Shown: positions 52 to 38,011 of the stretch, in pieces
Layout of the letters: the number at the start of each line of letters is the position of its first letter
How positions within the stretch are numbered: position 1 is the first letter of the stretch
Source: a virus
DNA length: 40,478 nucleotides
IMG/VR virus record: IMGVR_UViG_3300023118_000015
Coordinates: 1-40,478 of that record
Reading direction: 5' to 3' (one strand)
The notes under the pieces: generated by a model
What the model saw: only the letters and a program-made list of their open reading frames with translations
The model's database searches: none
Told to the model about the DNA's origin: nothing
Translations under genes and position numbers: made by a program

Positions 52-327
52 TCAAAAGGCGCGTTTTATCCCGTTGAGCTGGTTATGTTCCTTAACTGCC
101 GCTGCGTGCTGCAGATCCAGGTATGCGGCCAGGTCGTTTAGGTGAATGCCCTTGGCCGACTTCTGGCTCCGTTCCAAGCGGGTGATGGGCAACTTGATCT
201 GACCGCTCATCACCTTGCGCTGGAACATGTCAGGCGTCAGATGTGTGAAGTAATCCCTGCACACCAACTCCAGCGGGATAATCGCCTGACCGTCGTATTG
301 GGCCATGAGAATGAAGGCTGTATTCAT
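52..327 (-). CDS. prtN: PrtN-family pyocin-activator-like regulator
   Basis: A 91-aa protein matching the PrtN family in length and in its N-terminal pattern (MNTAFILMAQYDG, then a VCRDYFTHLTPDMFQRKV block and a K-G-I-H-L-DLA-Y block). In Pseudomonas aeruginosa, PrtN activates pyocin genes after RecA inactivates PrtR. Here the gene ends a P2-like early operon, so it more likely controls or reports phage functions than pyocin genes. The ATG is preceded by an AAGGGG ribosome site. Family assignment is firm; its role in this phage is inferred. No PrtR partner is visible, since the local repressor is too short to carry a LexA-like protease domain. Confidence 0.8.
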   Translation of the reverse strand: MNTAFILMAQYDGQAIIPLELVCRDYFTHLTPDMFQRKVMSGQIKLPITRLERSQKSAKGIHLNDLAAYLDLQHAAAVKEHNQLNGIKRAF

Positions 328-5562: not shown

Positions 5563-5763
5563 CTAGTTTGTGATCTGGCCGTCTTTGATTCCGAGCAAAA
5601 CAGCCGCTCGATGCGCTTCACCACGACGGCCTTTCTTACGGCCGTTTAGCAGGTCGCTGACCAGATTTTTGTTCAAGCCATGTTGGCGGCTAAATTCGGC
5701 AATGCTTTTACCCTCGCGATCAAGAACCGCGCGGGCTTGCTCGGGGGTCTGTAGGGCATGCAT
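5563..5763 (-). CDS. Cro-like DNA-binding protein
   Basis: A 66-aa protein with a helix-turn-helix at about residues 19-42 (KSIAEFSRQHGLNKNLVSDLLNGRKKGRRGEAH), of the type seen in small phage DNA-binding proteins related to BcepMu gp16. It is the first gene leftward from the switch region and divergent from the repressor, which is the position of cro/cox-type regulators. It is too short for anything beyond DNA binding and dimerisation. Function as lytic-side repressor is inferred from position. Confidence 0.7.
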   Translation of the reverse strand: MHALQTPEQARAVLDREGKSIAEFSRQHGLNKNLVSDLLNGRKKGRRGEAHRAAVLLGIKDGQITN

Positions 5764-5800
5764 AGTGTTCGTCCGTGTTTAATCGTGTTCGACGACAAGG

Positions 5801-5846
5801 ATTCTTGGTCAGTTTTCTGGTCAAGTCAAATTATTTTGATCAAAAA
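5801..5846. promoter_or_regulatory. Switch-region operators between Cro-like gene and CI
   Basis: The divergent gap holds two direct TGGTCA repeats (5806-5811, 5818-5823; period 12) and a perfect 12-bp palindrome TTTTGATCAAAA (5834-5845) that abuts the repressor ATG. A TTGACT-like -35 on the minus strand and a TTGGTC -35 on the plus strand overlap these repeats. The layout is that of a bistable phage switch; operator identity is inferred. Confidence 0.6.
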
Positions 5847-5847
5847 A

Positions 5848-6198
5848 ATGCTCATATCTTTAGGGGTAGGCGAACGCCTGCGGGAAGAACGCGAGCGGCT
5901 GGGTAAAAACCAGACCGATTTTGGCGTGGCCGCAGGGGTGAGCCGTGGTACTCAAAAAGCTTACGAGCTTGAGTCCAGTTCTCCCGATGTGCGCTATCTC
6001 TCTGGGCTTCAAGAGCTTGGAGTAGATGTGCATTACATACTCACCGGCTCGCGCGGTGACGCGGATCTCAACAATTTGAACGATGTCGAGTCGGCAGTTT
6101 TGAGCAACATGCGGCGGATGTCAGAGGATGACCGCAATGTGCTTTTGCGGACGGCCGCAGCATTTGCCAGCGCGGCAAATCAGGCCGGGAGTAAGTAA
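5848..6198 (+). CDS. cI: Phage repressor CI-type, short XRE protein
   Basis: A 116-aa repressor with an XRE helix-turn-helix at residues ~6-60 (LREERERLGKNQTDFGVAAGVSRGTQKAYE) and a helical tail (EDDRNVLLRTAAAFASA) of the sort used for dimerisation. ATG 5848 directly follows the palindromic operator; the upstream in-frame ATG at 5758 lies inside the divergent gene. There is no LexA/CI autocleavage domain, so induction should not work by RecA-stimulated self-cleavage. This is like the P2 C repressor. It is followed by a terminator at 6240. Confidence 0.8.
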   Translation: MLISLGVGERLREERERLGKNQTDFGVAAGVSRGTQKAYELESSSPDVRYLSGLQELGVDVHYILTGSRGDADLNNLNDVESAVLSNMRRMSEDDRNVLLRTAAAFASAANQAGSK

Positions 6199-6239
6199 AA
6201 CCCATCAGCGAATTGCGGGTTTAGTCGCGGTTTGATACG

Positions 6240-6262
6240 CCGACCATGAAGGTCGGTTTTTT
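6240..6262 (+). terminator. Rho-independent terminator after cI
   Basis: A 6-bp stem CCGACC (6240-6245) / GGTCGG (6251-6256) with loop ATGAA and a run of six T. It separates the repressor from the conversion genes. The ATG at 6246 lies in the loop, which argues against it as the start of the next gene. Confidence 0.85.
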
Positions 6263-6287
6263 CGTTGAATCAAAAGGAGATGTTCGA

Positions 6288-7088
6288 ATGGCGCTAAAGC
6301 CTTGTAAATCTTGCAAGCACGTTGTGGATTCCACCGCTAGGGTCTGCCCGAGCTGCGGCGTAAAAAATCCAGGTGTTAGAGTTGTAGGGCAGGTATTCGG
6401 GCTTTTGATCCTCCTCGTCATCATCGCTGGCGCCGTCACGACGTGTTCAGGTGGCGGTAGGGATAAGCCTGCCGACAAGGCTCACGCGTTGGGGAAGCCC
6501 GTGCAAAGTTCCACTTTACCCTCCACGTATATCATCATAGAAGACGAGTTTCGCGAGGGGCGGCCTCGTAAAATTGAGGTCATGTTGCCCCGGCGGCTCA
6601 ATGACACCGAACTTGCTGAGGTGGCGAAAACAATTCGCGCTGATACCAAATTCAAAGCCGACAAAACTTTCATAGGGTTTCGTGTGGAGGGGCAGACCGA
6701 AAAAACATACTGGGCCAATGCTAACTTCGATCCAGATTACCGGACATCTCTTATCGGCTTGAGCGCGAAGGATTACGAAACCCTTCAAGCGTTAGATCTG
6801 AAGGCTTACCCAAACAGGATCGGCAGCTGGTTGCGTGACGGAGCGCTGGGGCACGTAATGGTCTTGTACAAGCAGAAAGATAAGTATGCGATTGATTCTG
6901 TCTTTCCCACTGGTGGCAAAAATACGGAGCTCTATGATGGCAAAAAACTGCCTGATGGCGGGTTGCGACTTGACGATCCCGAAAGCGACTTCAATGAGCA
7001 TTACGTTGTCGATGCCAAGGGCAGCCTGCAAGGCTGGGGTGAGAGCGGTATTTACATGATGCTGCCCCCATTCAAACCAGCGCAGTGA
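6288..7088 (+). CDS. Zinc-ribbon, single-TM hypothetical protein (conversion gene)
   Basis: A 266-aa protein starting MALKPCKSCKHVV, with an AGGAG site before ATG 6288. Residues 6-23 form a zinc ribbon (CKSC...CPSC). Residues ~33-52 are one transmembrane helix (VFGLLILLVIIAGAVTTC). The remaining ~210 residues form a soluble domain on the far side of the membrane with no family I recognise. It lies between cI and gene D on the strand of the repressor, where P2-like phages carry lysogenic conversion genes. A role at the envelope, such as superinfection exclusion, is possible but inferred. Confidence 0.65.
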   Translation: MALKPCKSCKHVVDSTARVCPSCGVKNPGVRVVGQVFGLLILLVIIAGAVTTCSGGGRDKPADKAHALGKPVQSSTLPSTYIIIEDEFREGRPRKIEVMLPRRLNDTELAEVAKTIRADTKFKADKTFIGFRVEGQTEKTYWANANFDPDYRTSLIGLSAKDYETLQALDLKAYPNRIGSWLRDGALGHVMVLYKQKDKYAIDSVFPTGGKNTELYDGKKLPDGGLRLDDPESDFNEHYVVDAKGSLQGWGESGIYMMLPPFKPAQ

Positions 7089-7221
7089 CGTAACAAAACA
7101 CATAATTTATTTGCTTGCTGTCGATGACACACCAAAACGTGGTGGAAATTAGCTGTTCCTCGGGGCTTTCGAGGTGCCTTGTCGGTGCCGGGGCTCGGTT
7201 GCGTGTGAAAGGAGTATTCGC

Positions 7222-7389
7222 ATGAAAGAGAACAGCGGTTTGTCGGAAGCGCAGATGACACTTTTAGATATGAATTGTCTCAGCGATCAAGAAGTGAAGC
7301 TGTTAAGAATGTTCAGAGTTGTCAACGTCCAGAAACGCGTCGATATATTAAGGATAATTGAGGTATTTATGTTGGGCGCTGAGCAATAG
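7222..7389 (+). CDS. 55-aa helical peptide resembling a repressor C-terminal tail
   Basis: Starts MKENSGLSEAQ with an AAAGGAG site before ATG 7222. The body (LSDQEVKLLRMFRVVNVQKRVDILRIIEVFM) matches the helix-turn-helix-free tail common at the C-terminus of XRE phage repressors (LSxxExxLLxxYRxLxxxxRxxILxxxE), but no DNA-binding domain precedes it. It could dimerise with such a repressor. It is followed by a GC-rich hairpin (7397-7417). Function is unknown. Confidence 0.55.
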   Translation: MKENSGLSEAQMTLLDMNCLSDQEVKLLRMFRVVNVQKRVDILRIIEVFMLGAEQ

Positions 7390-7396
7390 TCTTGTG

Positions 7397-7417
7397 ACCC
7401 CGGGCAAGGCCTGGGGT
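7397..7417 (+). terminator. Possible terminator hairpin after the 55-aa gene
   Basis: ACCCC (7397-7401) pairs with GGGGT (7413-7417), and the interior GGC/GCC extends the stem. The T tail is poor, so it may be only an attenuating structure. Confidence 0.4.
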
Positions 7418-7454
7418 TATACCGTTTGGCTGCTTCATAATGCAGGGAGATAAT

Positions 7455-8849
7455 GTGAATAGCGAAGTGGATGTGTGGGCTGATGACTTCATGGGCCGTA
7501 AACCAAGCAGTGATTTTTTGACTAAGTACATTTTAGCCAATGATCACGTAAAAGTCCTCAATGTGAATTCGCCGTGGGGAGCAGGAAAAACATTTTTCTT
7601 AACGCGTTGGAAAGAAGAGTTGAGTAAGTCACACGTGTGTGTGATGTTTAACGCTTGGGAGACGGACTATTCCGCTGAACCTTTGTTAGCGTTAATAACA
7701 TGTATCGAACAGCAGACCAAAGATAAACTTGATATTACTTCATCTGCGACGGGGCGTCATGTTGTTAATACCGGTTCAAAAATTCTGAAAAAAGCGGCGC
7801 CGCTGATAGCGAAAGGATTGGTGAAGAAATTCGTCGGGGTGGAAATAGATGACCTATTTGGAAAAGATACCGGGGACGATACTGCAGATGCAGCTAAGGA
7901 TCTTGTATCATCGTTAATTGAAGATCAGGCGAAGACAGCGCAACATGTAGATGAATTCAAAAAAGCGATAGTGGAACGGCTAAGTAGCTCTGCCCAAAAT
8001 GACGGGCTTTCAAGTCCTGCGTTTATATTTATTGATGAGCTTGATAGGTGTCGTCCGACCTACGCGATAGAGCTATTAGAACGTATCAAACACTTTTTCG
8101 AACTGGATGATTGCCGTTTTATAATTGCTTCGGACTCAAAGCAGCTAGCGCATTCAATTCGCGCTGTATACGGTCAGGGATTCGCTTCGGAAAGATATTT
8201 AAACAGATTTTTCGATGCGGAATTTAGTTTAGATAACAGCAATCCATTTGAATTGGTTCATCGAATTCTACCAGAAATCGACTCCCTTGTTTTGGGTGTT
8301 AATGTTTCCGGGGAACTGCCCAATCACCATTTTCAGCGTGGTGATGTAAAACCTATTAAAAGAAGTACAATTATTAGTCCTATAAAGGGGTTTACGGAAA
8401 ATTCAATTTTTCTAGTTGGGATGTGTAGGTATTTCAATGTTGAGTTGAGGGAGCTTAATAATTATGCTAAGCAAATAAAAAGTGCTGCAGATACAGTTGG
8501 TGAGAAAGTGCACTTTTTTTGGTTGGCATATTTGGTTTTCTTTAAGTCTGTTAGCGGCGAATCTTATCAAGATTTGTGGGTGCCTGAGAAATGGGCAGCG
8601 GCAATCGATGAGTTCGAATCAGTCGGTGCCAAAGATGTAACGTTCTCATTTACCACAAATATGGCGACTGTAAAGGATTTTGCATCTTTTTACTTGACAA
8701 TTTTACACGCTGATCGTGAGAGGCTGCGGGCGATGTCAAGTAATCTAAGTTCGTGGAAGAGTACGATTTATTTTGATTTGATTAATGGGGAAATTGAAAA
8801 GTTAAGAACTTATAGAGGTGTTGTTGAGTTGGCGCATCGCCTAGTTTAA
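7455..8849 (+). CDS. KAP-family P-loop NTPase (prophage-encoded)
   Basis: A 464-aa protein from GTG 7455, chosen for its GGGAG site five bases upstream; an ATG at 7440 has none. Walker A is SPWGAGKTF (39-47), the KAP signature FNAWETDY lies at 65-72, and Walker B is IFIDELDRCRP (191-201). The downstream YGQGFASERYLNRFFD block is also typical. KAP NTPases include PifA, the F-plasmid exclusion protein against T7. The gene is markedly AT-richer than the structural genes and sits between cI and D as a moron. Phage exclusion is the most likely role, but this is inferred. No predicted TM insertion is obvious, unlike some KAP proteins. Confidence 0.8.
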   Translation: MNSEVDVWADDFMGRKPSSDFLTKYILANDHVKVLNVNSPWGAGKTFFLTRWKEELSKSHVCVMFNAWETDYSAEPLLALITCIEQQTKDKLDITSSATGRHVVNTGSKILKKAAPLIAKGLVKKFVGVEIDDLFGKDTGDDTADAAKDLVSSLIEDQAKTAQHVDEFKKAIVERLSSSAQNDGLSSPAFIFIDELDRCRPTYAIELLERIKHFFELDDCRFIIASDSKQLAHSIRAVYGQGFASERYLNRFFDAEFSLDNSNPFELVHRILPEIDSLVLGVNVSGELPNHHFQRGDVKPIKRSTIISPIKGFTENSIFLVGMCRYFNVELRELNNYAKQIKSAADTVGEKVHFFWLAYLVFFKSVSGESYQDLWVPEKWAAAIDEFESVGAKDVTFSFTTNMATVKDFASFYLTILHADRERLRAMSSNLSSWKSTIYFDLINGEIEKLRTYRGVVELAHRLV

Positions 8850-27599: not shown

Positions 27600-27645
27600 G
27601 GGGCGGCGCTACTGACTCGCAGGCATGGGCGGCAGCATCGCGGCC

Positions 27646-29403
27646 ATGACTACTACTGAACTGCTCCCAATCGATCCCCGACGCCAATCCAAGTTCCTGT
27701 ATTGGATGGGTTGGCGCATCTGCGAGATTGCCGAGGCTACGGGCGAAAAGGAAAAAACGCTACACAGCTGGAAGGCCCGCGACGAGTGGGACCGGGCGGA
27801 TACCGTCGAGCGCATCGGTGGGGCGCTGGAAGCGCGTCTGGTGCAGCTGATCCTCAAGGAAGGCAAGAGCGGCGGGGACTTCAAAGAGATCGACCTGCTG
27901 CACCGGCAGTTGGAGCGGCAGGCCCGCATCCAGCGCTTCCAGGGTGGCGGTACCGAGACCGAACTCAACCCCAACCTCGCCAAGCGCAACGAAGGGCCGA
28001 AGAAGAAGACGCCGAAAAACGACATCAACGAAGACCAGATCGAGCTACTGCGTGAAGCGTTTATCGATGGGTGTTTCGACTACCAGAAAGACTGGCACCG
28101 GGCGGGCAACCAGCGCACCCGCGTCATCCTCAAAAGCCGGCAGATCGGCGCCACTTATTACTTCGCCCGAGAGGCGTTTATTGATGCGCTGGAAACTGGG
28201 CGCAATCAGATTTTCCTGTCGGCGTCGAAGAATCAGGCCTACCTGTTCCGTGGTTACATCCAAACGTTTGCCCGCGAGGTCATCGGCGTCGAGCTGACTG
28301 GTGATCCCATCGTGCTGCCGAACGGCGCCGAACTGTTTTTTCTCGGTACCAACGCGCGCACGGCCCAGGGCTACCACGGCAATTTCTACTTTGACGAATT
28401 CTTCTGGACGTTCAAGTTTGAGGAGCTGAACAAGGTTGCCTCGGGTATGGCGATGCACAAAAAGTGGCGCAAAACCTACTTCTCGACGCCGTCGACCATG
28501 GCCCATGAGGCCTACACATTCTGGACGGGCGAGCGCTTCAACAAGGGCAAGCCGGCGGCTCAGCACACCAAAGTCGACGTATCCCATGGGGCGCTCCAGC
28601 AGGGCCGGTTCTGTGAAGACCGGTTATGGCGGCAGATCGTCACCATCCTTGATGCGGAGCAGGGTGGTTGCGACCTGTTCGACATTGAAGAACTGCGGCG
28701 GGAGTACAGCCCCGAAGCGTTCGCAAACCTGCTCATGTGCGAATTCGTCGACGACGGCGCGAGTATTTTCCCGCTGACGGTGTTGCAGCCCTGCATGGTC
28801 GACAGCTGGGTCGAGTGGGCCGAGGACTACAAGCCGTTTGCCATGCGGCCTTTCGGTGATCGCCAGGTGTGGGTGGGATATGACCCGGCGGAAACCGGCG
28901 ATTGCTCGGGCCTGGTGGTGGTCGCGCCGCCACTGGTGCCAGGGGGCAAGTTCCGGGTACTGGAGCGTCACCAGTTCCGAGGTATGGACTTCGCGGCGCA
29001 GGCGAGCGTGATCAAAGCCGTCTGCGATCGGTATTGGGTGACGTACATCGGGATTGACGTCACCGGTCTGGGTAGCGGCGTGGCGCAGCTGGTGCGCCAA
29101 TTCTTCCCCAATGTCACCACGTTCAGCTATTCGCCTGAGGTCAAGACCCGCCTGGTGCTGAAGGCCTACGACGTGATCCACCGGGGCCGGCTGGAGTTCG
29201 ACGCCGGCTGGACCGACATGGCGCAATCGCTGATGGCGATTCGGAAGACCATCACCGCAGGCGGTCGCCAATTCACCTACACCGCCGGCCGCAACGACAA
29301 CACAGGCCACGCCGACCTGGCGTGGGCGCTCTTTCACGCATTGCACAACGAACCGCTGGAGGGGCAGACCACTGCCAACACCGGGCGGATGGAGATTTTT
29401 TGA
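27646..29403 (+). CDS. P: Large terminase subunit P
   Basis: A 585-aa P2 gpP homologue. The N-terminus has a helix-turn-helix-like segment (ICEIAEATGEKEKTLHSWKARDEW). The ATPase has an unusual Walker A (KSRQIGATY, ~163-171) and Walker B NFYFDE (~246-251). The C-terminal nuclease begins near VGYDPAETGDCSG and continues through IGIDVTGLG. It cuts and packages DNA. ATG 27646 aligns with gpP; an in-frame ATG at 27625 is possible. Confidence 0.94.
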   Translation: MTTTELLPIDPRRQSKFLYWMGWRICEIAEATGEKEKTLHSWKARDEWDRADTVERIGGALEARLVQLILKEGKSGGDFKEIDLLHRQLERQARIQRFQGGGTETELNPNLAKRNEGPKKKTPKNDINEDQIELLREAFIDGCFDYQKDWHRAGNQRTRVILKSRQIGATYYFAREAFIDALETGRNQIFLSASKNQAYLFRGYIQTFAREVIGVELTGDPIVLPNGAELFFLGTNARTAQGYHGNFYFDEFFWTFKFEELNKVASGMAMHKKWRKTYFSTPSTMAHEAYTFWTGERFNKGKPAAQHTKVDVSHGALQQGRFCEDRLWRQIVTILDAEQGGCDLFDIEELRREYSPEAFANLLMCEFVDDGASIFPLTVLQPCMVDSWVEWAEDYKPFAMRPFGDRQVWVGYDPAETGDCSGLVVVAPPLVPGGKFRVLERHQFRGMDFAAQASVIKAVCDRYWVTYIGIDVTGLGSGVAQLVRQFFPNVTTFSYSPEVKTRLVLKAYDVIHRGRLEFDAGWTDMAQSLMAIRKTITAGGRQFTYTAGRNDNTGHADLAWALFHALHNEPLEGQTTANTGRMEIF

Positions 29404-30452
29404 TGTCGAACCGCCGCAGAAATACCAAGCAAGTGGCCCAGGCCTCCACGGTTGCAACGCAGGAGTTCATTCCTCGCAGTGATAGCAAGATGGAGGCGTT
29501 CAGCTTCGGTGATCCGTCACCAGTGTTGAGTGGCCGGGAGGTGTTTGACTATCTGGAGTGCTGGTTTAACGGGCGGTGGTACGAGCCGCCGCTATCGCTG
29601 GACGGTCTGGCGCGGTCTGTGGGTTCCAGCGTGCATCTGCATTCGGGGTTGATGTTCAAGCGCAACCTGCTGAGCAAAACCTTCATTCCCCACCGGCTGC
29701 TGTCGAGGGCCGCGTTCGAACAGTTCGCCCTGGACTTCCTGTGCCTGGGTAACGGCTATCTGGAAGGGCGGCGCTCGATGCTCGGCCCGGTGCGCGAGCT
29801 GGTACCGACGTTGGCGAAGTACATGCGTTCGGGCAAGGACGGGCGGCAGTTCATGGTCCAGGGCTGGAAAGAGGAGCATGAGTTTGAACCGGGCACCGTT
29901 TTTCATCTGCGGGAAGCGGATCTGCACCAGGAGGTGTACGGCTTGCCCGAGTGGATCAGCGCCTTGCAGTCGGCGTTGCTGAATGAGTCGGCCACGCTGT
30001 TCCGCCGCAAGTACTACGAGAACGGCAGTCACGCCGGCTTCATCCTCTATATGACCGACGCCGCGCAGAACGAAGCGGATGTCGATTCACTGCGCAAAGC
30101 GCTCAAGGATTCCAAGGGGCCAGGCAACTTCCGCAACCTGTTCGTGTACTCGCCTAACGGCAAAAAGGACGGGTTGCAGATCATCCCGGTCAGCGAAGTG
30201 ACGGCGAAGGACGAATTCAACTCGATCAAAAACCAGACCCGCGACGACGTGCTGGCCAGCTTGCGCATTCCGCCGCAGTTGATGGGGATCGTGCCGCAGA
30301 ACGCGGGTGGGTTTGGGTCGATCAGGGAGGCGGCGCAGATCTATGCCGCCAATGAACTGGAGCCGATTCAGGCGCGGATGGCGCAGGTGAATGAGTGGCT
30401 CGGGGAAGAGGTCGTGCGGTTCAAACCCTATGAAATTCCTGTAGGGGGTTGA
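29403..30452 (+). CDS. Q: Portal protein Q
   Basis: A 349-aa P2 gpQ homologue (EAFSFGDPSPVLSGREVFDYLECWFNGRWYEPPLSLDGLARS... QNAGGFGSIREAAQIYAANELEPIQARM). It is the dodecameric gate through which DNA is packaged. Its ATG overlaps the P stop by one base (TGATG). It is the last recognisable virion gene on the right. Confidence 0.95.
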   Translation: MSNRRRNTKQVAQASTVATQEFIPRSDSKMEAFSFGDPSPVLSGREVFDYLECWFNGRWYEPPLSLDGLARSVGSSVHLHSGLMFKRNLLSKTFIPHRLLSRAAFEQFALDFLCLGNGYLEGRRSMLGPVRELVPTLAKYMRSGKDGRQFMVQGWKEEHEFEPGTVFHLREADLHQEVYGLPEWISALQSALLNESATLFRRKYYENGSHAGFILYMTDAAQNEADVDSLRKALKDSKGPGNFRNLFVYSPNGKKDGLQIIPVSEVTAKDEFNSIKNQTRDDVLASLRIPPQLMGIVPQNAGGFGSIREAAQIYAANELEPIQARMAQVNEWLGEEVVRFKPYEIPVGG

Positions 30453-30599: not shown

Positions 30600-30938
30600 A
30601 TGTCACTGGGAAATTTACAGCACCGGGTTAGAGAGTCAGCTCGTATTTTGGCAACTGGTAGAGGCGATATTAAGGATCGTTTAACCGTTGCCATGCTTGA
30701 TAAGTTTTTGCTCGCGAATGTTCCTGATGAGCCGGATCTTCCAGATTATTTCAGGCTTGAAATCGCAGGGATCATCTCTGAACTAACTGTTAAGAGTTGG
30801 AATGGAGAGGACCGATTGCGAGCTACTCTCTACCGCATGCGTCAAAAGACCGCGCAGACGTTCGCAGAGCGAATTTGGTGTTTGCATCATGAACTCGAGG
30901 AGTATCTTCGCAGCGGTTTCATACCTGTCCCCGATTAA
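30600..30938 (+). CDS. Hypothetical protein between Q and yedK
   Basis: A 112-aa, mostly helical soluble protein (MSLGNLQHRVRESARILATGRGDIKDRLTVAMLDKFLLANVPDEP...). A strong AGGAGG site precedes ATG 30600. Its 3' end overlaps the convergent yedK gene by 20 bases. No family recognised. It may be a prophage end gene or the first chromosomal gene after attR; the att site itself was not seen. Confidence 0.65.
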   Translation: MSLGNLQHRVRESARILATGRGDIKDRLTVAMLDKFLLANVPDEPDLPDYFRLEIAGIISELTVKSWNGEDRLRATLYRMRQKTAQTFAERIWCLHHELEEYLRSGFIPVPD

Positions 30939-31641
30939 TAAGTACGAGTTTTAGGGGCAGATCATTGGATCTAGTAATTAAATCCGCTCCCTTGTTCTTT
31001 ACGTTCCCTACGGCGTCGCTGACCTTGAACCATTCAAAGGCCTCGACCGGCTCGCCCTGGTGCAGCGCCATCTGCTCGGCACGCTCTTTTGGCGTTGCCG
31101 GGTCCAGCCATTCGCGGGCAAGGTCCGGCGTCAGTACCACGGGCCTTCGGTCGTGAATATCCACCATGCCGCCGGCACTGTCGGCGGTGATGATCACAAA
31201 TCCGTCATGCTCGCCTGGGCCTTCATCGGCATCTGGTAATTGGCCGATGGCCGCGCAGAAGATCGGCGCGCCGTCCCGCCTGCGGATCAGGTAGGGCTGT
31301 TTCTTCGGTCCACCTTCGTCCACCCACTCAAACCAATTATCGATAGGCGTGATCGCACGGTGTGGCCAGATCGCCCGAAAGAATGGGCCGTGAGCGACCT
31401 TCTCGACGCGTGCGTTGATAGGTGCGGAGCGGTCTTCCGCCCAATGCGGTCGCCATCCCCAACGAACTGGATCAGCGTGCAGCAATTCGCCTTGCAGGTG
31501 CAGCAATGCCACCTGGGTCGTCGGAGCAACGTTGTACCGCTCGATCGGTAGATCCCCCACTGAGTTTGCCAGGGCGTTGGGCATGCTCAGCGCCACAACG
31601 AAGTCATGGATTCCCCTGTACTGCGACAGCCTTCCGCACAT
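30919..31641 (-). CDS. yedK: SOS response-associated peptidase (YedK/HMCES, SRAP)
   Basis: A 240-aa SRAP-domain protein. Met removal exposes catalytic Cys2 (MCGRLSQY); the other active-site residues are visible as N76 (NARVE), E105 (NWFEW) and H163 (DIHDRRP). The family forms a thiazolidine crosslink with abasic sites in single-stranded DNA and shields them. Start 31641 carries an AAGGAGG site. It follows the coiled-coil gene, which lies behind a LexA box, so SOS induction of both is likely. Confidence 0.92.
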   Translation of the reverse strand: MCGRLSQYRGIHDFVVALSMPNALANSVGDLPIERYNVAPTTQVALLHLQGELLHADPVRWGWRPHWAEDRSAPINARVEKVAHGPFFRAIWPHRAITPIDNWFEWVDEGGPKKQPYLIRRRDGAPIFCAAIGQLPDADEGPGEHDGFVIITADSAGGMVDIHDRRPVVLTPDLAREWLDPATPKERAEQMALHQGEPVEAFEWFKVSDAVGNVKNKGADLITRSNDLPLKLVLINRGQV

Positions 31642-31666
31642 AGCCAAATCCTCCTTCCGTTTGATC

Positions 31667-32005
31667 TTAGACAATCGTGTTCGGTCGAGGTCTCATCTCG
31701 TTTACGATTCGCTTCAGGCCTTCGACCTCACGCTGACTTGCCCCCAGTGACGTCGTCAGCGTGTAGATCTGCTTTCGCATCTCAGCCGCTTCGCCGCCTC
31801 TCTGACGGAGGTATCCGGCGAACTCGGTGTTCTTCGCCTGGGTAGCCAGCAGCATCTGACTGATTCCGAAAACATCCTCCCGCGCTTTGCGCAGTTGCAC
31901 GTTCAGTTCCTGGATCTCGTTCTCCAGGAGGCGGCAGTGCTGCCGGTACATTTGCAATGGGGTGGGGAGGCCAAGCCAACCGTGGGTGTCTTCATCGTTG
32001 TTCAT
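31667..32005 (-). CDS. Coiled-coil hypothetical protein under LexA control
   Basis: A 112-aa protein, nearly all one helix with heptad-like spacing (LLENEIQELNVQLRKAREDVFGISQMLLATQAKNTEF and AEMRKQIYTLTTSLGASQREVEGLKRIV). A perfect LexA box lies 17 bases upstream of its ATG, and yedK follows 25 bases downstream, so the two form an SOS operon. No family recognised. A partner of YedK or of replication forks is inferred from the operon. Confidence 0.65.
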   Translation of the reverse strand: MNNDEDTHGWLGLPTPLQMYRQHCRLLENEIQELNVQLRKAREDVFGISQMLLATQAKNTEFAGYLRQRGGEAAEMRKQIYTLTTSLGASQREVEGLKRIVNEMRPRPNTIV

Positions 32006-33062: not shown

Positions 33063-33151
33063 GAGTGGTACGAAAGTGGTACGGCGCTTTCTGAGGTGCG
33101 CTGTAAGCGCTATCACTGTGAGGTTTGTAGGATTAGTGGTTAAATCCACTC
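33063..33151. repeat. Structured ~90-nt element, copy A
   Basis: Two TGGTAC boxes 11 bases apart (33066, 33077), then AATCCACT from 33143. The end sequences GAGTGG (33063-33068) and CCACTC (33146-33151) can pair. An inner GCGCTT/AAGCGC stem is visible. It lies left of the RloAB module and is the most diverged of the four copies. Confidence 0.6.
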
Positions 33152-33264
33152 ATGCAGGTTTTAATTCTATGCAAAGCTAGCAGAAAAATAGGTTTCTTCG
33201 AAAATTAGTATTTCAATCTTGTAGGAAATAGCAGCAAATTTGACTGAAGATGTATTTAAAATCA

Positions 33265-33295
33265 CTCATCATTATTTCACTTAAATAATGATGAG
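33265..33295 (-). terminator. Strong hairpin after rloB
   Basis: A perfect 13-bp stem (33265-33277 with 33283-33295) and a 5-nt loop, 16 bases beyond the RloB stop. The minus-strand tail is TGATTTTAAAT. It probably ends the rloAB message. Confidence 0.75.
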
Positions 33296-33311
33296 CAGTC
33301 TTGAGGCTTCT

Positions 33312-33950
33312 CTATGGCAGTTTCACTATTTTTTGGGGGGCAGATAAAGACTCAAATTTGTCGATCAATAAGTGAATTTCAGTACTAGGGTTTGGTGCGT
33401 TACTTTCTTGAGCATCCTTAAGTACTCTCGGGGACACCTCTCTCGCTTTCTGAAAAGGTTCGCCCAGCAGTTCATGAAAGTAACTGCGATCTTTCCCCTT
33501 GTCATAATCTGCAAGAAGTGGCTGGGCTTTGATCTCTTTTATTACGCATCCTCCGGGCGATAGACGTCCTGTGCGATTGAAAGGTTTTCGGCAATGACCA
33601 AAATGCAGAAGTATCCAAAACTCAAACGAGGGATACGACGGTACTATGGTTATTTTTTTGTGGGCTTTAGCCATGTTTAATGCCCGGTCGAAACATACAT
33701 GACTATCGCGATCAATTGCGCAATAAACTGCGTCATATTTTTTTTGGCGCTCAATGGCATGTGCAACGATGCCGCTCGGGTGCGTAACACCCGCGTGAGC
33801 CACATCTACCAATAAAGCTGCTCTAAAGTAGTCGGCCGCCTCTTGTAAGTACTGCTTGCCTGATTTAGTGTCCTCACAAAGAACCAGTATCTTTTTTTCT
33901 TCAGTATATTTCGGTTCTCCTCTAGCGAAGGAGCTAGCACTTCTGGCCAT
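33312..33950 (-). CDS. rloB: RloB-family protein (AbiLii-like, Toprim-type)
   Basis: A 212-aa protein with the RloB hallmarks: an early acidic motif ILVLCEDTKSGKQYL (E26), an IDRDSH motif (D80, D82) and SYPSFEFWILLHFGHC (E110). These acidic positions fit a Toprim-like nuclease site. Three bases separate it from the upstream RloA stop, so they are co-translated. RloA/RloB pairs correspond to the AbiL abortive-infection system of lactococci. Low GC and its setting between repeat elements support horizontal origin. Function as the effector of a phage defence pair is inferred. Confidence 0.85.
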   Translation of the reverse strand: MARSASSFARGEPKYTEEKKILVLCEDTKSGKQYLQEAADYFRAALLVDVAHAGVTHPSGIVAHAIERQKKYDAVYCAIDRDSHVCFDRALNMAKAHKKITIVPSYPSFEFWILLHFGHCRKPFNRTGRLSPGGCVIKEIKAQPLLADYDKGKDRSYFHELLGEPFQKAREVSPRVLKDAQESNAPNPSTEIHLLIDKFESLSAPQKIVKLP

Positions 33951-33953
33951 TGT

Positions 33954-35225
33954 TCAAACGTCCTTGGTTAATGGGAGGCCTCTGTAGCGACCAGCAAAAT
34001 AGCGTCGCTCTAAATCTTCGCCTTCTCGCCCTTCGAAGTCATGAACGGAAAAAAGCCTCGTGGCGGCATTTTTATCACGTTCGGTAATCCAGAACTGGTC
34101 TCGCCTTAAGATTCTTGACTTCATAAGGTGAGTGTCGTGAGTTGTGAATATTAACTGCGAGTGATGGGTGGATTTAATATGTCTTTTAATTATGTTGGCT
34201 ACAATTTGTGGGTGCAGGCTACTGTCGAGTTCGTCAATGAATAAGGTAAGGTTGTCATCCTTTTTACTTCCTCTTAGTGCGAGTGTTGCCCAAGGTAACC
34301 AGAAGCCAATTAAATTTTTAGTTCCTTCGGATTCCTCTGCGAAATCAAAATTAGCGTCCCCAAGAGCACTTTTATGAATTAGCGTCGTTTTGGTGTCGTT
34401 GTCAAATTCGTCAAAACCTTCTGCATCCAAGATAGTCTTGTTTAGAAGATCTTTATGGCTTTCGTCTTTGGCAGTAATAGATATAGATGATATTGGAATG
34501 TCTACTTCAGCCAAGAAATTTGACAGACTTTCAGCGGTATCCGGAATCATGGCGAGTACTTTTCGGCTAGCGCGAGACCATGTGTCCAAACTGTTCTGGT
34601 CAATGACGAGAAGTGAGTCATCAAACCAGGAAAATGGAATTTTGAGCTGTGTCATATCGTCGCTGCTATTCTGAGCGGCTTGCGCTAGATACAACGACCT
34701 TGGACTGGTGGTTTTTCGCCAAGCTTCGTGAACTTGCTCGCCACCTTCTAAAGTACTACCGAACTTATATGTTTCTTTCTCGTTTACCAGCTCTCGCTTA
34801 AAAAGAAGGCGTTCTTTCCCGCTTGGAAAAGCTGTCAATTCTTCAAAAACGATTCGATTGTTATTTGCACTCAATAAGTACTGGTAGCGCATACCCTTTT
34901 GAATGAAGTGATATTCAAAATTGCTAGGCTCCTCTTCCAGGTCTACGTCAAATCGAAAATAGTCTGCAGTTAACTTTTTATCAGGGCGGTGCGGTGCCTT
35001 AGAAAACACATCTCTAACAAAATCTATTGCCTTGAATAGAGAAGATTTACCTGACGCGTTAGGCCCATATATAGCTGCAACCTTAAGTAAATTTGGTAAT
35101 TTTTCACCTTTGACTCGAGGGGAAATGACATTTTCTCGTTTGCCTAGGCGTGGAGATGCCACCATTGAAAGCGTTTGCCGATCACGAAATGACTTGAAGT
35201 TTGAGACTGAAAATTCGATCAGCAT
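33954..35225 (-). CDS. rloA: RloA-family AAA/ABC-type ATPase (AbiLi-like)
   Basis: A 423-aa ATPase beginning MLIEFSVSNFKSFRDRQTLSM, typical of SMC/OLD-related AAA_15/AAA_21 proteins. Walker A is GPNASGKSS (54-62), Walker B LFIDELDSSLHP sits near residue 340, and a switch histidine occurs in FTTHDTHLM. Such ATPases sense phage or damaged DNA and control a partner effector, here RloB. The ATG has only a weak ribosome site. The gene is AT-rich compared with the phage genes. Confidence 0.87.
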   Translation of the reverse strand: MLIEFSVSNFKSFRDRQTLSMVASPRLGKRENVISPRVKGEKLPNLLKVAAIYGPNASGKSSLFKAIDFVRDVFSKAPHRPDKKLTADYFRFDVDLEEEPSNFEYHFIQKGMRYQYLLSANNNRIVFEELTAFPSGKERLLFKRELVNEKETYKFGSTLEGGEQVHEAWRKTTSPRSLYLAQAAQNSSDDMTQLKIPFSWFDDSLLVIDQNSLDTWSRASRKVLAMIPDTAESLSNFLAEVDIPISSISITAKDESHKDLLNKTILDAEGFDEFDNDTKTTLIHKSALGDANFDFAEESEGTKNLIGFWLPWATLALRGSKKDDNLTLFIDELDSSLHPQIVANIIKRHIKSTHHSQLIFTTHDTHLMKSRILRRDQFWITERDKNAATRLFSVHDFEGREGEDLERRYFAGRYRGLPLTKDV

Positions 35226-35620
35226 TCTGAAAATCCGTTGTAGCGAGGGGTAGAGATCTCACAGTAGGCCAAAAATCGCGCCTAGGTGCAATTTTTTTGC
35301 ATTTGGACCTCGCGGATGCTTCATGTGTTTTCGGCAGGGCATATCTCGACCTTCGCCAGATCGAGCACCTTTCAGCGGTCGAACGATGATCGCTATGTTC
35401 AGCCTACTCATTGCTTCCAGCCAATATCTGATAGTCAGTGGCCTATCCCTGCTGGTCGAAAAAGTTGTGTTTGACTCTAACTGATTTGAGCTGTGAGCTG
35501 GTGCCTCTCAAAAATCATTGACCTGTATTAGAGCGTTGTGCTGCACAGGCAGTCGCCGACAGGAACGAAATACATCGGGGTTGATGAGGTTAGCAAGAAA
35601 ATAGCGAGATTTTTATGCGA
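35226..35620. other. Non-coding stretch upstream of rloA
   Basis: About 395 bases with no supported gene. It presumably contains the rloA promoter near its left end. Short frames are present but none has a ribosome site or a recognisable product. Confidence 0.4.
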
Positions 35621-35710
35621 GGTGGCTGGTACGAAAATGGTACGGACGGTTAGCTATGGCGTCGTAATGCCCAGGGTGTTGAGCCTCGAGGTTTAGGCGC
35701 CCAATCCATC
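35621..35710. repeat. Structured ~90-nt element, copy B
   Basis: TGGTAC boxes at 35627 and 35638 (same 11-base period as copies A and D) and AATCCATC at 35703-35710. GGTGG (35621-35625) can pair with CCATC (35706-35710) with one G-U. The inner segment GGACGGTTAGC...ATGGCG aligns well with copies C and D. Confidence 0.65.
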
Positions 35711-35912
35711 ACACGGGGTGTGATCGTCCAATCTGACGAAAACTGCAGACTTTCGATGTGATTCACGGCGTCCTCTAACGGTTGGCCGTCCGTTTTGTCT
35801 TTGCCTTGGGCAATTCGCCTAGCGGTGACATGATTTCCATTGAATGTGCGTCTTGGGCAGATAGGCCGATCGCTTTTGTAGAGGTTTAGGGCAGATCTTA
35901 ACGCATGGTTAG

Positions 35913-36002
35913 GATGGCGATACATAAGTGGTAGAGACGGTTGGCAGTGGTGATGCACTGCCGGTGCTACAGTGCCTGTAGACTTAAGCGTTCAAATCCA
36001 TC
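35913..36002. repeat. Structured ~90-nt element, copy C
   Basis: GATGG (35913-35917) pairs with CCATC (35998-36002). Inside are a perfect 7-bp hairpin GGCAGTG/CACTGCC (35943-35949, 35956-35962) and a perfect 6-bp hairpin CTACAG/CTGTAG (35967-35972, 35976-35981). The end GTTCAAATCC is identical to a tRNA T-loop. It is the best structured copy, though its TGGTAC boxes have decayed to CGATAC and TGGTAG. Confidence 0.65.
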
Positions 36003-36078
36003 ACCGGTAAAATTTTTGATTTTTTGCCTAGCTAGCAACAATCGGTCTAGGCTTACAGCCTCCGGCTGAAAATTCTAG

Positions 36079-36109
36079 ATGTTGCCTGTTTCTTCTAACT
36101 CGGCAACAT
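36079..36109 (-). terminator. Hairpin downstream of the RelA/SpoT-domain gene
   Basis: An 8-bp perfect inverted repeat ATGTTGCC (36079-36086) / GGCAACAT (36102-36109) with a 15-nt loop, 30 bases beyond the stop codon at 36139. The minus-strand tail contains AATTTTC. A terminator role is likely but the loop is long. Confidence 0.5.
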
Positions 36110-36138
36110 GGATAAAACACTATTAATATAGGATTCGA

Positions 36139-37095
36139 TTACCTTGCCGAGTATCTAGTCCTTAAAAAATCGCTGACGTTTTCGCTTCCGAACTCGTTGC
36201 GAAGACCCTCTCTAGCAAGTCCCACATTCATAAAGTACTGACCTGATTGGCGATGGTGTTCTTTTGCTTTTTTTGCGTCTTCCAGCATTATAGATTTCAT
36301 GTGCTTATTCATGATGCGCTTTAGTTCGCCAGCTGTTTTAACACCAAAGTGATTTAGATCAGTCACAAGTTCGTCATACGGCTCGTTCTCGCGTTTAATA
36401 CGACCGGGAAAGATTTCTGAAAGAGCGGAGTCTAAAACCTCAACGTTTAGAGGTGTTTCAGAGTTCTCATACTTCATCTGGCCTTGCACATAAAATTCAC
36501 GATCTTCCAGAAGTCGATCAAATTCTAGATCCACTGTTTCTAAAAGCGCTGAAGCACGATTTATGGAGCGGCGTAGTGGAAGCGGTACACTCGCCTCGTG
36601 CTTATATTGGAGCTTATGAGAAGCTGCGGCCCAAATATGTTGCGCTAACGTTCTAACTTGAATTTCAACGCGTATACCTCCCAAATCGCCCCAGCTTGGT
36701 ATTTCTAGCCAAGTCTCCGGCACCTCAATTATGTAGTGTTGCGACTGATAGCCAAACTGAGTGTCGGCTAGTCTTAAGGAAGTATCCTCAGAGCTTTTTA
36801 TATTCAACGCATTACGAAGGAGGTTGTCGACGGCAATAAGGTCTCGCCGAAATAGCAAAATCAAACGAATTCCGATAAAGTCATCTAGGTCTTCAATATT
36901 GTCGAGAACAAGGGATTTTCTGCTTATTTTTTCTTCTATAGATGACCATTCTTTTACTCTCGCCTCGATGGGGACGCCCAGTGTCACTCCCTCTTTTTCA
37001 AGGAGGTGGTTCAGCTCAGTAGATAGTGCTGACTGTAAACGTTTTGCACGAGATTCGACTCGAATATATTTGAGTTTTAATTCCGAGAGATTCAA
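36139..37095 (-). CDS. Stand-alone RelA/SpoT-domain (p)ppGpp synthetase-like protein
   Basis: A 318-aa protein with an intact synthetase domain and no hydrolase domain. Visible motifs are EARVKEWSSIEEK (R46, K48), DDFIGIRL (71-78), the G-loop FGYQSQH (114-120) and VEIQVRTLAQHIWA (143-156). A charged ~130-residue C-terminal extension follows. The family includes housekeeping small alarmone synthetases and toxic toxSAS/CapRel proteins that pyrophosphorylate tRNA or make toxic alarmones. The setting in a defence-like island favours the latter. The TTG start has an AAGGA site. No TGS or ACT domain is present. Confidence 0.85.
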   Translation of the reverse strand: MNLSELKLKYIRVESRAKRLQSALSTELNHLLEKEGVTLGVPIEARVKEWSSIEEKISRKSLVLDNIEDLDDFIGIRLILLFRRDLIAVDNLLRNALNIKSSEDTSLRLADTQFGYQSQHYIIEVPETWLEIPSWGDLGGIRVEIQVRTLAQHIWAAASHKLQYKHEASVPLPLRRSINRASALLETVDLEFDRLLEDREFYVQGQMKYENSETPLNVEVLDSALSEIFPGRIKRENEPYDELVTDLNHFGVKTAGELKRIMNKHMKSIMLEDAKKAKEHHRQSGQYFMNVGLAREGLRNEFGSENVSDFLRTRYSAR

Positions 37096-37354
37096 GTGAA
37101 TATGTCCTTTTTATGTTTTTATCTTTTGCCTTTGAGGCAGTCTTTAATGTGCATCAGTTAAAAGTTGAAAAATCCAGCAAGCCACGCTGAAATCTTACAT
37201 GCCAATAGATGCTGTTAATATGCCTCGCTGTCGATTGCGACAAGTTTTTTGAAGCAGCAGCAATTTCAATACTTCGTTCATACTAATGATCGTGACCGGT
37301 AGCATCCGAAGACCCTAGATTGGTGGGTAATCCTATGCGACTGTCAACTGCCAT
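37096..37354. other. AT-rich gap upstream of the RelA/SpoT-domain gene
   Basis: About 260 bases with no supported ORF. It should contain the promoter of the RelA/SpoT-domain gene. No obvious antitoxin frame of useful length was seen. Confidence 0.4.
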
Positions 37355-37570
37355 TTAAGTGGGGGGCTGCCGTATGAGTAGAGCCAGGCCTTGTTTGATA
37401 TGGCCTGCGTTTTCACCAATTGTGTGAAGTGCCCCCCGAACATTGTCACCAACCTCTAAAGAATTTTGCTTCTCAGCCCAAAGAGTCAGCTCCATTACTG
37501 CCGCTTCGAGGGCGAGTTGATTTTGATAAAGCCGTTCCAGCACGTCCGGTAATGAGTATTCGCTTGCCAT
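37355..37570 (-). CDS. Small helical hypothetical protein
   Basis: A 71-aa protein (MASEYSLPDVLERLYQNQLALEAAVMELTLWAEKQNSLEVGDNVRGALHTIGENAGHIKQGLALL), predicted as two to three amphipathic helices. It resembles small proteins of unknown function common in Pseudomonas. It lies upstream of the RelA/SpoT-domain gene on the same strand, about 260 bases away, and immediately downstream of element D. An antitoxin role is conceivable from position, but nothing in the sequence proves it. Confidence 0.6.
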   Translation of the reverse strand: MASEYSLPDVLERLYQNQLALEAAVMELTLWAEKQNSLEVGDNVRGALHTIGENAGHIKQGLALLIRQPPT

Positions 37571-37662
37571 GGTTTGCGGCTCGTTTCAAAAAAATCAAGC
37601 ATAGCAGCGGTATTCCCCTGATTTGCGAAAATCAGCAAAAAACGAGTGTGGGTGGGAGTATT

Positions 37663-37749
37663 GGTGGTACGAAAGTGGTACAGACGGGTCGCAATGGTGC
37701 TGTAACCCACGTTTTGTAGGAGCGGTGGGATTAGTCGTACCAATCCATC
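37663..37749. repeat. Structured ~90-nt element, copy D
   Basis: TGGTAC boxes at 37665 and 37676, AATCCATC at 37742-37749, and end pairing GGTGG (37663-37667) with CCATC (37745-37749). The inner CAGACGGGTCGCAATGGTG aligns with copies B and C. It bounds the RelA/SpoT-domain segment on the right. Confidence 0.65.
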
Positions 37750-38011
37750 ATCGGGGCGACGGAGAAGCGGCGGGAGAGTGACTTCGGTGAGGCGCTGATC
37801 AGGGGCATTGGACAATCTGAGTGGGTAGGGCGGAATGCGTGAGTTTATCAGGAATGGGCGTGCAGGTTTTGTGCTCAGGCTGAGAGGGTTCTTCTGTCCA
37901 TAATGCGACTGCGGCCTTGGCGTTCGACGTTGACGAACCCGGCGAGTGAAGGGGGAAGCATGCGTGCTGTTTTCAGCAAAAAATTACCGTGAAAAAAGGC
38001 AGGCACGGTGC
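37750..38011. other. Non-coding stretch right of element D
   Basis: No supported gene. It is the transition from the accessory island to chromosomal DNA, and no clear direct repeat or att core was found in it. Confidence 0.35.

What the first reader, a model, noticed from the sequence alone, without database searches (positions are those of the whole stretch)
33063..37749. Four diverged ~90-nt structured elements bracket the defence modules
Copies at 33063-33151, 35621-35710, 35913-36002 and 37663-37749 share a geometry: a TGGTAC (or decayed) box, a second one 11 bases later in A, B and D, then 65-66 bases to AATCC followed by ATC or ACT. In each, bases at the 5' end can pair with the 3' end, and the pair differs in step (GAGTGG/CCACTC, GGTGG/CCATC, GATGG/CCATC), which suggests structural constraint. 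Copy C folds into two perfect inner hairpins and ends in a tRNA-like T-loop string. RloAB lies between A and B, and the RelA/SpoT gene between C and D. This fits serial insertion of cargo at a repeated, tRNA-derived or structured recombination site, with the recombinase elsewhere. It could also be a family of structured RNAs.
Basis: partly seen in the sequence, partly recalled or inferred. Interest (0 to 1): 0.8.

Follow-up and report, generated by a model that had tools for sequence, protein, structure and literature searches.

The report
Stacked prophage attachment sites flanking defence genes
The four repeats are DNA docking sites for the enzyme that splices a virus into a bacterial chromosome; the last one marks the virus's present edge, and three older, decaying ones separate anti-virus gene modules that piled up beside it.

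Summary
In detail: exactly four copies, same strand, same geometry. They are not RNAs and not tRNA-derived. They are attachment-site halves of tyrosine integrases that insert into the 5' end of dusA. D (37665-37750) is the attR of this P2-like prophage: its core, CCAATCCATCA, is the antisense of dusA codons, and the displaced dusA start (MPLISASPKSLSRRFSVAPMMDW) follows it. The TGGTAC boxes behave as integrase arm-type sites: of 20 paired dusA elements, 15 show boxes at both ends, and in all 15 the class at the right end (TGGTAC or TTGCTAC) matches the left end beside int, 8 of 8 and 7 of 7. Among relatives of the window's excisionase, 28 of 30 readable left ends carry the TGGTAC palindrome. 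A, B and C lack dusA DNA behind them and bound integrase-less modules: AbiL-like RloAB (A-B) and a RelA/SpoT gene plus a small conserved gene (C-D). Stacks with a PARIS gene, or beside an ApeA-like gene, occur in other Pseudomonas or viral contigs. Best reading: CIME-like accretion of defence modules at dusA. Not excluded: trans-mobilised integrase-less cassettes. I saw no description of the boxes or stacks in what I searched and read.

The parts
33066..33151 (+). Copy A: arm boxes TGGTAC 33066-33071 and 33077-33082, spacer, decayed core TAAATCCACTC 33141-33151; relict attachment site (inferred)
   Evidence: Jackknifed profile 41.6 bits; coordinates checked
35627..35711 (+). Copy B: boxes 35627-35632 and 35638-35643, core CCAATCCATCA 35701-35711; relict attachment site (inferred)
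   Evidence: 41.4 bits
35918..36003 (+). Copy C: decayed boxes CGATAC 35918-35923 and TGGTAG 35929-35934, core CAAATCCATCA 35993-36003; relict attachment site (inferred)
   Evidence: 30.4 bits
37665..37750 (+). Copy D: boxes 37665-37670 and 37676-37681, core CCAATCCATCA 37740-37750; present attR of the prophage
   Evidence: 61.6 bits; displaced dusA start follows directly
37740..37808 (-). Displaced 5' end of the host dusA gene (MPLISASPKSLSRRFSVAPMMDW, then a stop after two more codons)
   Evidence: Translations; same arrangement behind many other copies
33152..35711 (.). Module A-B: RloAB / AbiL-like defence pair, no integrase seen
   Evidence: Bounded by the cores of A and B; genes
33312..33950 (-). 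RloB / AbiLii-like protein, 212 aa
   Evidence: PF13707 E 1.5e-25; PADLOC AbiLii E 7.9e-18
33954..35225 (-). RloA / AbiLi-like ATPase, 423 aa
   Evidence: PADLOC AbiLi E 9.3e-83; PF13304
35712..36003 (.). 292-bp B-C interval, holding copy C; no gene was identified in it
   Evidence: ORF list shows one 102-aa frame (35650-35958, -) across it, not searched
36004..37750 (.). Module C-D: RelA/SpoT-domain gene plus small conserved gene, no integrase seen
   Evidence: Bounded by the cores of C and D
36139..37095 (-). RelA/SpoT-domain protein, 318 aa, matches candidate defence family PDC-S33
   Evidence: PF04607 E 1.6e-19; PDC-S33 E 7.6e-14; 66% identical homologue in the right-end region of another prophage, L085
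37355..37570 (-). Small conserved gene (71 aa) just inside attR
   Evidence: Translation; relatives in many fetched loci, with both arm classes
52..327 (-). Excisionase at the left end of the prophage; int should lie just beyond the window
   Evidence: phrog_1300 E 2.5e-31; relatives carry int and TGGTAC arms beyond it
27625..30452 (+). P2-like terminase and portal genes that precede the cargo region
   Evidence: PHROGs and Pfam

Best explanation
Each copy is the right-arm half of an attachment site of a dusA-specific tyrosine integrase: two direct-repeat arm-type boxes, a spacer of about 58 bp, and an 11-bp core that is the antisense of dusA codons. Shown: D is followed by the displaced start of dusA, so it is the attR of this P2-like prophage; the boxes come in classes that match between the two ends of the same element. 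Inferred: A, B and C are earlier attachment sites at the same core that were buried when further DNA was added, and have decayed since. The AbiL-like and RelA/SpoT modules between them carry no integrase, so they are CIME-like remnants (elements that lost int but kept att) that accreted at dusA and may now travel with the prophage. Binding of Int to the boxes and any present mobility of the modules were not tested.
For: Displaced dusA start behind D and behind 33 of the 65 copies outside the window in 55 loci. Class match of arm boxes: of 20 paired dusA elements, 15 show boxes at both ends, 8 of 8 TGGTAC and 7 of 7 TTGCTAC matched, none crossed (chance of so clean a split, worked out by hand, 1 in 6435). 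Left ends mostly carry the boxes as a palindrome such as TTGGTACAATGTACCAA before int; of 80 loci related to the window's excisionase, 30 reach far enough to be read, 28 have the TGGTAC palindrome and the other two have TGGTAC boxes not arranged as a palindrome. Fixed spacing. Seven stacks at or beside dusA including the window; no integrase match between copies in L085, L089, L093, L094 and none among the three long genes tested in the window; the outermost copy scores highest in 6 of 7. Defence cargo: AbiL, PDC-S33, AriAB/PARIS in L093 (E 7.4e-142), ApeA-like left of the inner copy in L019.
Against: In L011 the inner copy scores higher than the outer. 5 of the 20 paired elements could not be scored at the left end: G052 and G059 (TGGTAC at the right end) and G054 and G056 (TTGCTAC) show no boxes there, and G040's left core was not found. 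Pairs were made for 20 of the 25 genomes with two or more dusA-start matches; G070's two ends lie on different contigs. One displaced end (G023) has no recognised boxes, one (G071) only a single TTGCTAC, one (G024) other boxes. Class A and B integrases differ little overall (69% between, 74% within A, 92% within B). The spacer holds more inverted repeat than shuffles (4.85 against 4.43, sd 0.09), which this reading does not explain. The window's own int and left arm are not in the record. A, B and C have no dusA DNA behind them, so their origin as former attR sites is inferred; A's core is badly decayed. Cargo tested at L086 and L092 is not recognised as defence, nor are two proteins of L085, one of L093 and one of L011.
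Confidence: 0.87

Rival explanations
1. The modules are true non-autonomous cassettes: each has a right end (boxes plus core) and its own left end, is cut out as a circle and reinserted by the prophage's class A DusA integrase acting in trans, somewhat like integron cassettes.
For: A second conserved sequence L (CCGAAAAGGCTGATGTTTTTCGCTC...) follows the core directly in 16 copies, each supported by leave-one-out, among them the inner copy of 4 of 7 dusA stacks (L019, L085, L089, L033/L093). All 7 matches to the 45-base L pattern (up to 3 mismatches) in 199 genomes lie directly after a copy of the element. A 776-bp block, one gene plus the element plus part of L, is 96% identical in two genomes at places whose flanks do not align. 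In the window the DNA after A and after C shares 35 bp (1 of 1000 single-base shuffles; three pairs were tried).
Against: In the window L itself is not supported after any copy when the window is left out of the model. No excised circle or clean empty site was seen. No exact arm box lies within 170 bp behind most L-type copies. Inner copies look decayed rather than maintained in 6 of 7 stacks.
Confidence: 0.2
2. A family of structured RNAs whose stems are conserved through compensatory changes.
For: Copy A folds better than its shuffles (z -2.48). Spacers hold longer inverted repeats than shuffles (mean 4.85 against 4.43). 5' and 3' ends pair slightly better than swapped partners (4 of 300).
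Against: Consensus fold of 35 copies: 4 pairs, none covarying. B, C and D do not fold clearly better than shuffles. Spacer folding z averages -0.61 over 95 copies. The conserved parts, boxes and core, are explained by integrase and dusA.
Confidence: 0.02
3. For A-C no site-specific step was involved: the copies served only as short homologous stretches at which phages exchanged their right ends by general recombination.
For: A RelA/SpoT homologue (66%) occurs in the same right-end region of another prophage without a copy directly beside it (L085), so modules are shuffled there by some means.
Against: The copies of the seven dusA stacks all lie in one orientation; the element followed by L also occurs outside dusA.
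Confidence: 0.12

Closest known systems
dusA-specific integrases with their islands and prophages (Farrugia et al. 2015, PMC4482086; abstract, sections 14-16 and passages seen)
   Same: Target in the 5' end of dusA, host start displaced and replaced by the element's own, a P2-like prophage among them (Pf-5 Prophage 03), cargo variable
   Different: The parts seen describe 21-bp attL/attR repeats; they do not mention TGGTAC arm boxes, arm classes or stacked internal sites
CIMEs and tandem accretion (definition seen in passages of PMC5704250)
   Same: Elements that lost integration genes but kept att sites, stacked at one target by site-specific integration
   Different: Described there for ICEs and IMEs; here inside the right end of a P2-like prophage with anti-phage genes. 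A complete attL/attR pair for each module is not shown
Tandem dusA elements in Vibrio (IEVpaBan1a/1b, passages of PMC8409611)
   Same: Two elements in tandem at dusA; abortive-infection genes in some dusA elements
   Different: Both tandem elements there encode integrases
Defence hotspots of P2-like prophages (recalled, not looked up)
   Same: Defence cargo at a fixed place near the packaging genes
   Different: Here the module edges carry attachment-site copies
Integron gene cassettes (recalled)
   Same: Same-orientation array of modules each ending in a recombination site
   Different: No IntI; the site is of phage arm-plus-core type; mobility not shown

Membership tests
dusA-specific integrative elements | Insertion within the 5' end of dusA with the host start displaced | tested here: met
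   D followed by the dusA start on the minus strand
dusA-specific integrative elements | DusA-type integrase at the other end | tested here: inconclusive
   Window stops at the excisionase; relatives of that excisionase are followed by int with TGGTAC arms
dusA-specific integrative elements | Core repeat at both ends | tested here: inconclusive
   attL lies outside the record; in relatives an intact-dusA core was found at the left end in 19 of 20
CIME / accretion | Module has no integrase of its own | tested here: met
   Window genes tested between A and D; L085, L089, L093, L094
CIME / accretion | Module keeps attL and attR | tested here: inconclusive
   Core at both edges (A's decayed), right-arm boxes only; no left-arm box within 170 bp behind A, B or C
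CIME / accretion | Mobilised in cis with a neighbouring element | not testable with these tools
   Needs excision assays
Structured RNA family | Compensatory base-pair changes | tested here: not met
   0 covarying pairs in 35 copies; weak outer pairing signal
tRNA or tRNA-derived site | tRNA detectable or tRNA gene as target | tested here: not met
   ARAGORN 0 genes; Rfam none at threshold; target is dusA
Integron-like trans-mobilised cassette | Conserved module left end | tested here: inconclusive
   L in 16 other copies, not in the window; A and C share 35 bp
AbiL / RloAB defence | AbiLi-type ATPase with AbiLii/RloB partner side by side | tested here: met
   PADLOC and Pfam

The most novel reading that the evidence does not exclude
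P2-like Pseudomonas prophages carry an integron-like array: integrase-less cassettes, several with defence genes, each ending in a class A arm-plus-core site, are cut out and inserted in trans by DusA integrases at the prophage edge and at other chromosomal places.
Probability: 0.18. Interest if true: 0.78.

Novelty: new variant of a known kind. Interest (0 to 1): 0.46.

Why it matters
It suggests a concrete route by which prophages collect anti-phage genes: each insertion at dusA leaves a readable att copy, so the order of acquisition could be read from the stack. The arm-box classes give a simple sequence rule for pairing integrases with their islands and for finding the right edges of dusA elements. 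If modules move in trans, defence genes would have a cassette system of their own.

Tried and rejected
RNA reading: single folds, Rfam at gathering and at E up to 5 (two chance microRNA matches), consensus folding, pairing statistics: not supported. tRNA: none. One copy each against plasmids (A) and phages (D): no match. An early L match behind C (E 5e-6) was circular because C was in the model; it vanished in the jackknife and leave-one-out and is not used. L as a repeated chromosomal target without the element: not seen, 7 of 7 matches in 199 genomes follow a copy. Empty-site search for two non-dusA copies: it showed a variable chromosomal region but no clean empty site. Of 52 stretches with the exact double-box pattern, 21 were dropped as unrelated after reading their flanks: 17 Mesorhizobium, L036, L045, L010 and L018; exact duplicates L025, L040, L051 were left out of the alignment.

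Full report
What was checked. The window is a 40,478-base virus record. Its genes are those of a P2-like prophage (terminase and portal), from an excisionase at the left edge to chromosome-like genes (Wzz, MFS transporter) at the right. A profile built from 81 copies outside the window finds four and only four copies in it, far above shuffles.

The family. The exact double-box pattern gave 17 stretches in viral contigs and 35 in genomes; 31 of these 52 loci hold the full element (15 viral contigs and 16 loci titled Pseudomonas) and 21 are unrelated. A sequence-only model hits 53 of 199 Pseudomonas genomes (the stricter filters used there lose weak matches).

What the 3' motif is. Behind D and behind many other copies the opposite strand reads (R)RFSVAPMMDW, the start of DusA, and soon stops. 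Intact dusA genes in L028, L093, L094 and L103 continue MMDWTDRHCRF. So the core CCAATCCATCA is the antisense of dusA codons, and D is an attR with the displaced host start behind it. This is the insertion mode described for dusA integrases by Farrugia et al. 2015 (PMC4482086; abstract, sections 14-16 and passages seen), who list a P2-like prophage of Pseudomonas protegens Pf-5. The name DusA rests on my recognition of the protein's start and on this paper; no family search was run on dusA.

What the boxes are. A pattern for the dusA start that does not include the boxes matched 59 of 59 genomes, 25 of them at two or more places. I fetched 17 places not yet in hand; 15 were displaced ends and 2 were intact dusA. 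Of the 15, three have TGGTAC boxes (class A), nine have TTGCTTA/TTGCTAC boxes at similar spacing (class B), G071 has a single TTGCTAC, G024 has other boxes and G023 none that I recognise. I then paired the two ends of 20 elements, from 20 of the 25 genomes (some right ends came and had been found through class A boxes; G070's ends lie on different contigs). In 15 of 20 the left end shows boxes too, mostly as a palindrome before int, and the class always agrees with the right end: 8 A, 7 B, none crossed; four left ends had no boxes and one left core was not found. TTGCTAC is one change from TGGTAC, so the one-mismatch class A counts printed for class B right ends are not independent; the exact forms are distinct. 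Int sequences are A-A 74%, B-B 92%, A-B 69% identical on average (14 integrases), so arm class shows only weakly in overall identity. For the window's own lineage, 80 viral loci with a related excisionase (87-99% identical) were examined: 30 reach far enough, 28 of them with the class A palindrome (23 distinct stretches) and two with TGGTAC boxes not in palindrome; four of the 28 (L272, L292, L306, L310) are the contigs whose right-end elements were found earlier (L017, L003, L007, L011). That Int binds the boxes is inferred from this and from general knowledge of phage arm-type sites (recalled).

A, B and C. They have the same boxes and core but no dusA start behind them. They edge modules in which no integrase was seen: AbiL-like RloAB between A and B, and a RelA/SpoT gene (candidate family PDC-S33) plus a small conserved gene between C and D. 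Stacks at or beside dusA were also seen in L011, L019, L085, L089, L093 (same place as L033) and L094. L093 has an AriAB (PARIS) gene where the window has the RelA/SpoT gene; L019 has an ApeA-like gene just left of its inner copy. L019 also holds two copies of the small gene, one left of the ApeA-like gene and one left of the outer copy, as if each element had brought its own. In 6 of 7 stacks the outermost copy scores highest (L011 is the exception), as expected if only the outer site is still in use. Of the 55 fetched genome loci, 47 have one copy and 8 have two or three; they were partly chosen for having several, so this is not a frequency.

The second sequence, L. In 16 non-redundant copies outside the window the core is followed by a conserved sequence L, each supported by leave-one-out. 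It was found only next to the element (7 of 7 pattern matches in 199 genomes), at inner positions of four dusA stacks and at places away from dusA. In the window L is not supported; A and C share another 35-bp stretch. This keeps the cassette reading open. Cargo at non-dusA copies is not recognised as defence where tested (L086 and L092), except a RelA/SpoT gene beside a copy in L087 (PDC-S33), a copy followed by a dusA start.

Function. Best reading: successive site-specific insertions at the dusA core, loss of integrase genes from older elements, and burial of their att sites inside the growing right end of the prophage, the accretion process described for CIMEs (passages of PMC5704250). Tandem dusA elements are known in Vibrio (passages of PMC8409611). 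The benefit would be the defence genes; their activity was not tested. Results that this reading does not explain: longer inverted repeats in the spacer than in shuffles and a slight end-to-end pairing signal.

Literature. Searches for dusA with integrase or defence terms, tandem attachment sites with hotspots, arm-type with dusA, CIME accretion, tycheposons, and arm-binding with defence systems listed no title or abstract start that describes these boxes or stacks. Only listings were seen for all but three papers, and only open-licence papers are held, so this is weak evidence of absence.

Noticed in passing
L088, L090, L092, L096, L098, L101, L109, L117, L124 and others: Element plus second conserved sequence L, dispersed in Pseudomonas away from dusA; in some copies GGCCGATTGCCGCC-like inverted ends flank it. 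L170 and L171 share 185 bp of it, and one 776-bp block with a TPR-like gene (name from reading it) is 96% identical in two genomes.
   Followed up: partly
L202-L209 and L214 (displaced dusA ends of G062, G049, G020, G055, G026, G044, G056, G054, G031): A second arm class, TTGCTTAGAAATTGCTAC-like, with TTGCTACAATGTAGCAA-like boxes before int in seven of them; G024 (L210) shows other boxes, TGCACACTGAGTGCACAC.
   Followed up: partly
window 37355-37570, - strand; L085, L012, L089, L016, L019, L202, L205, L206 and others: A small gene (71 aa) just inside attR recurs in elements of both arm classes (tblastn); function unknown, a part in recombination or its control would be worth testing.
   Followed up: partly
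window 5758-8849, + strand: Repressor-like gene followed by two genes on the strand opposite to the neighbouring phage genes; the last (469 aa) resembles the Qat ATPase QatA below the family cut-off: a possible further defence locus.
   Followed up: no
window 30919-31674, - strand; L007, L004, L040: An SRAP (SOS-associated) gene lies in the same right-end region; in L007, L004 and L040 it is followed by genes that read as LexA/UmuD-like and DinB/UmuC-like (clusters, names from reading).
   Followed up: no
L021-L024, L026, L029-L031, L035, L037, L042, L046-L050, L054: In 17 Mesorhizobium loci the same double-box pattern begins an unrelated stretch that is strongly conserved between genomes; unexplained.
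   Followed up: no
L008: A PD-T7-3 defence gene (E 5.2e-168) next to a copy of the element, with a tyrosine integrase that has an Arm-DNA-bind_2 domain nearby.
   Followed up: no
L164-L171 (G105, G032, G114, G116, G074, G082, G211, G190): A variable chromosomal region whose flanking genes (a 416-428 aa gene, a small MFKITPNPP-type gene, a 340-370 aa hydrolase-like gene) recur in different combinations in the eight genomes; the element lies there in G211 and G190 only.
   Followed up: partly
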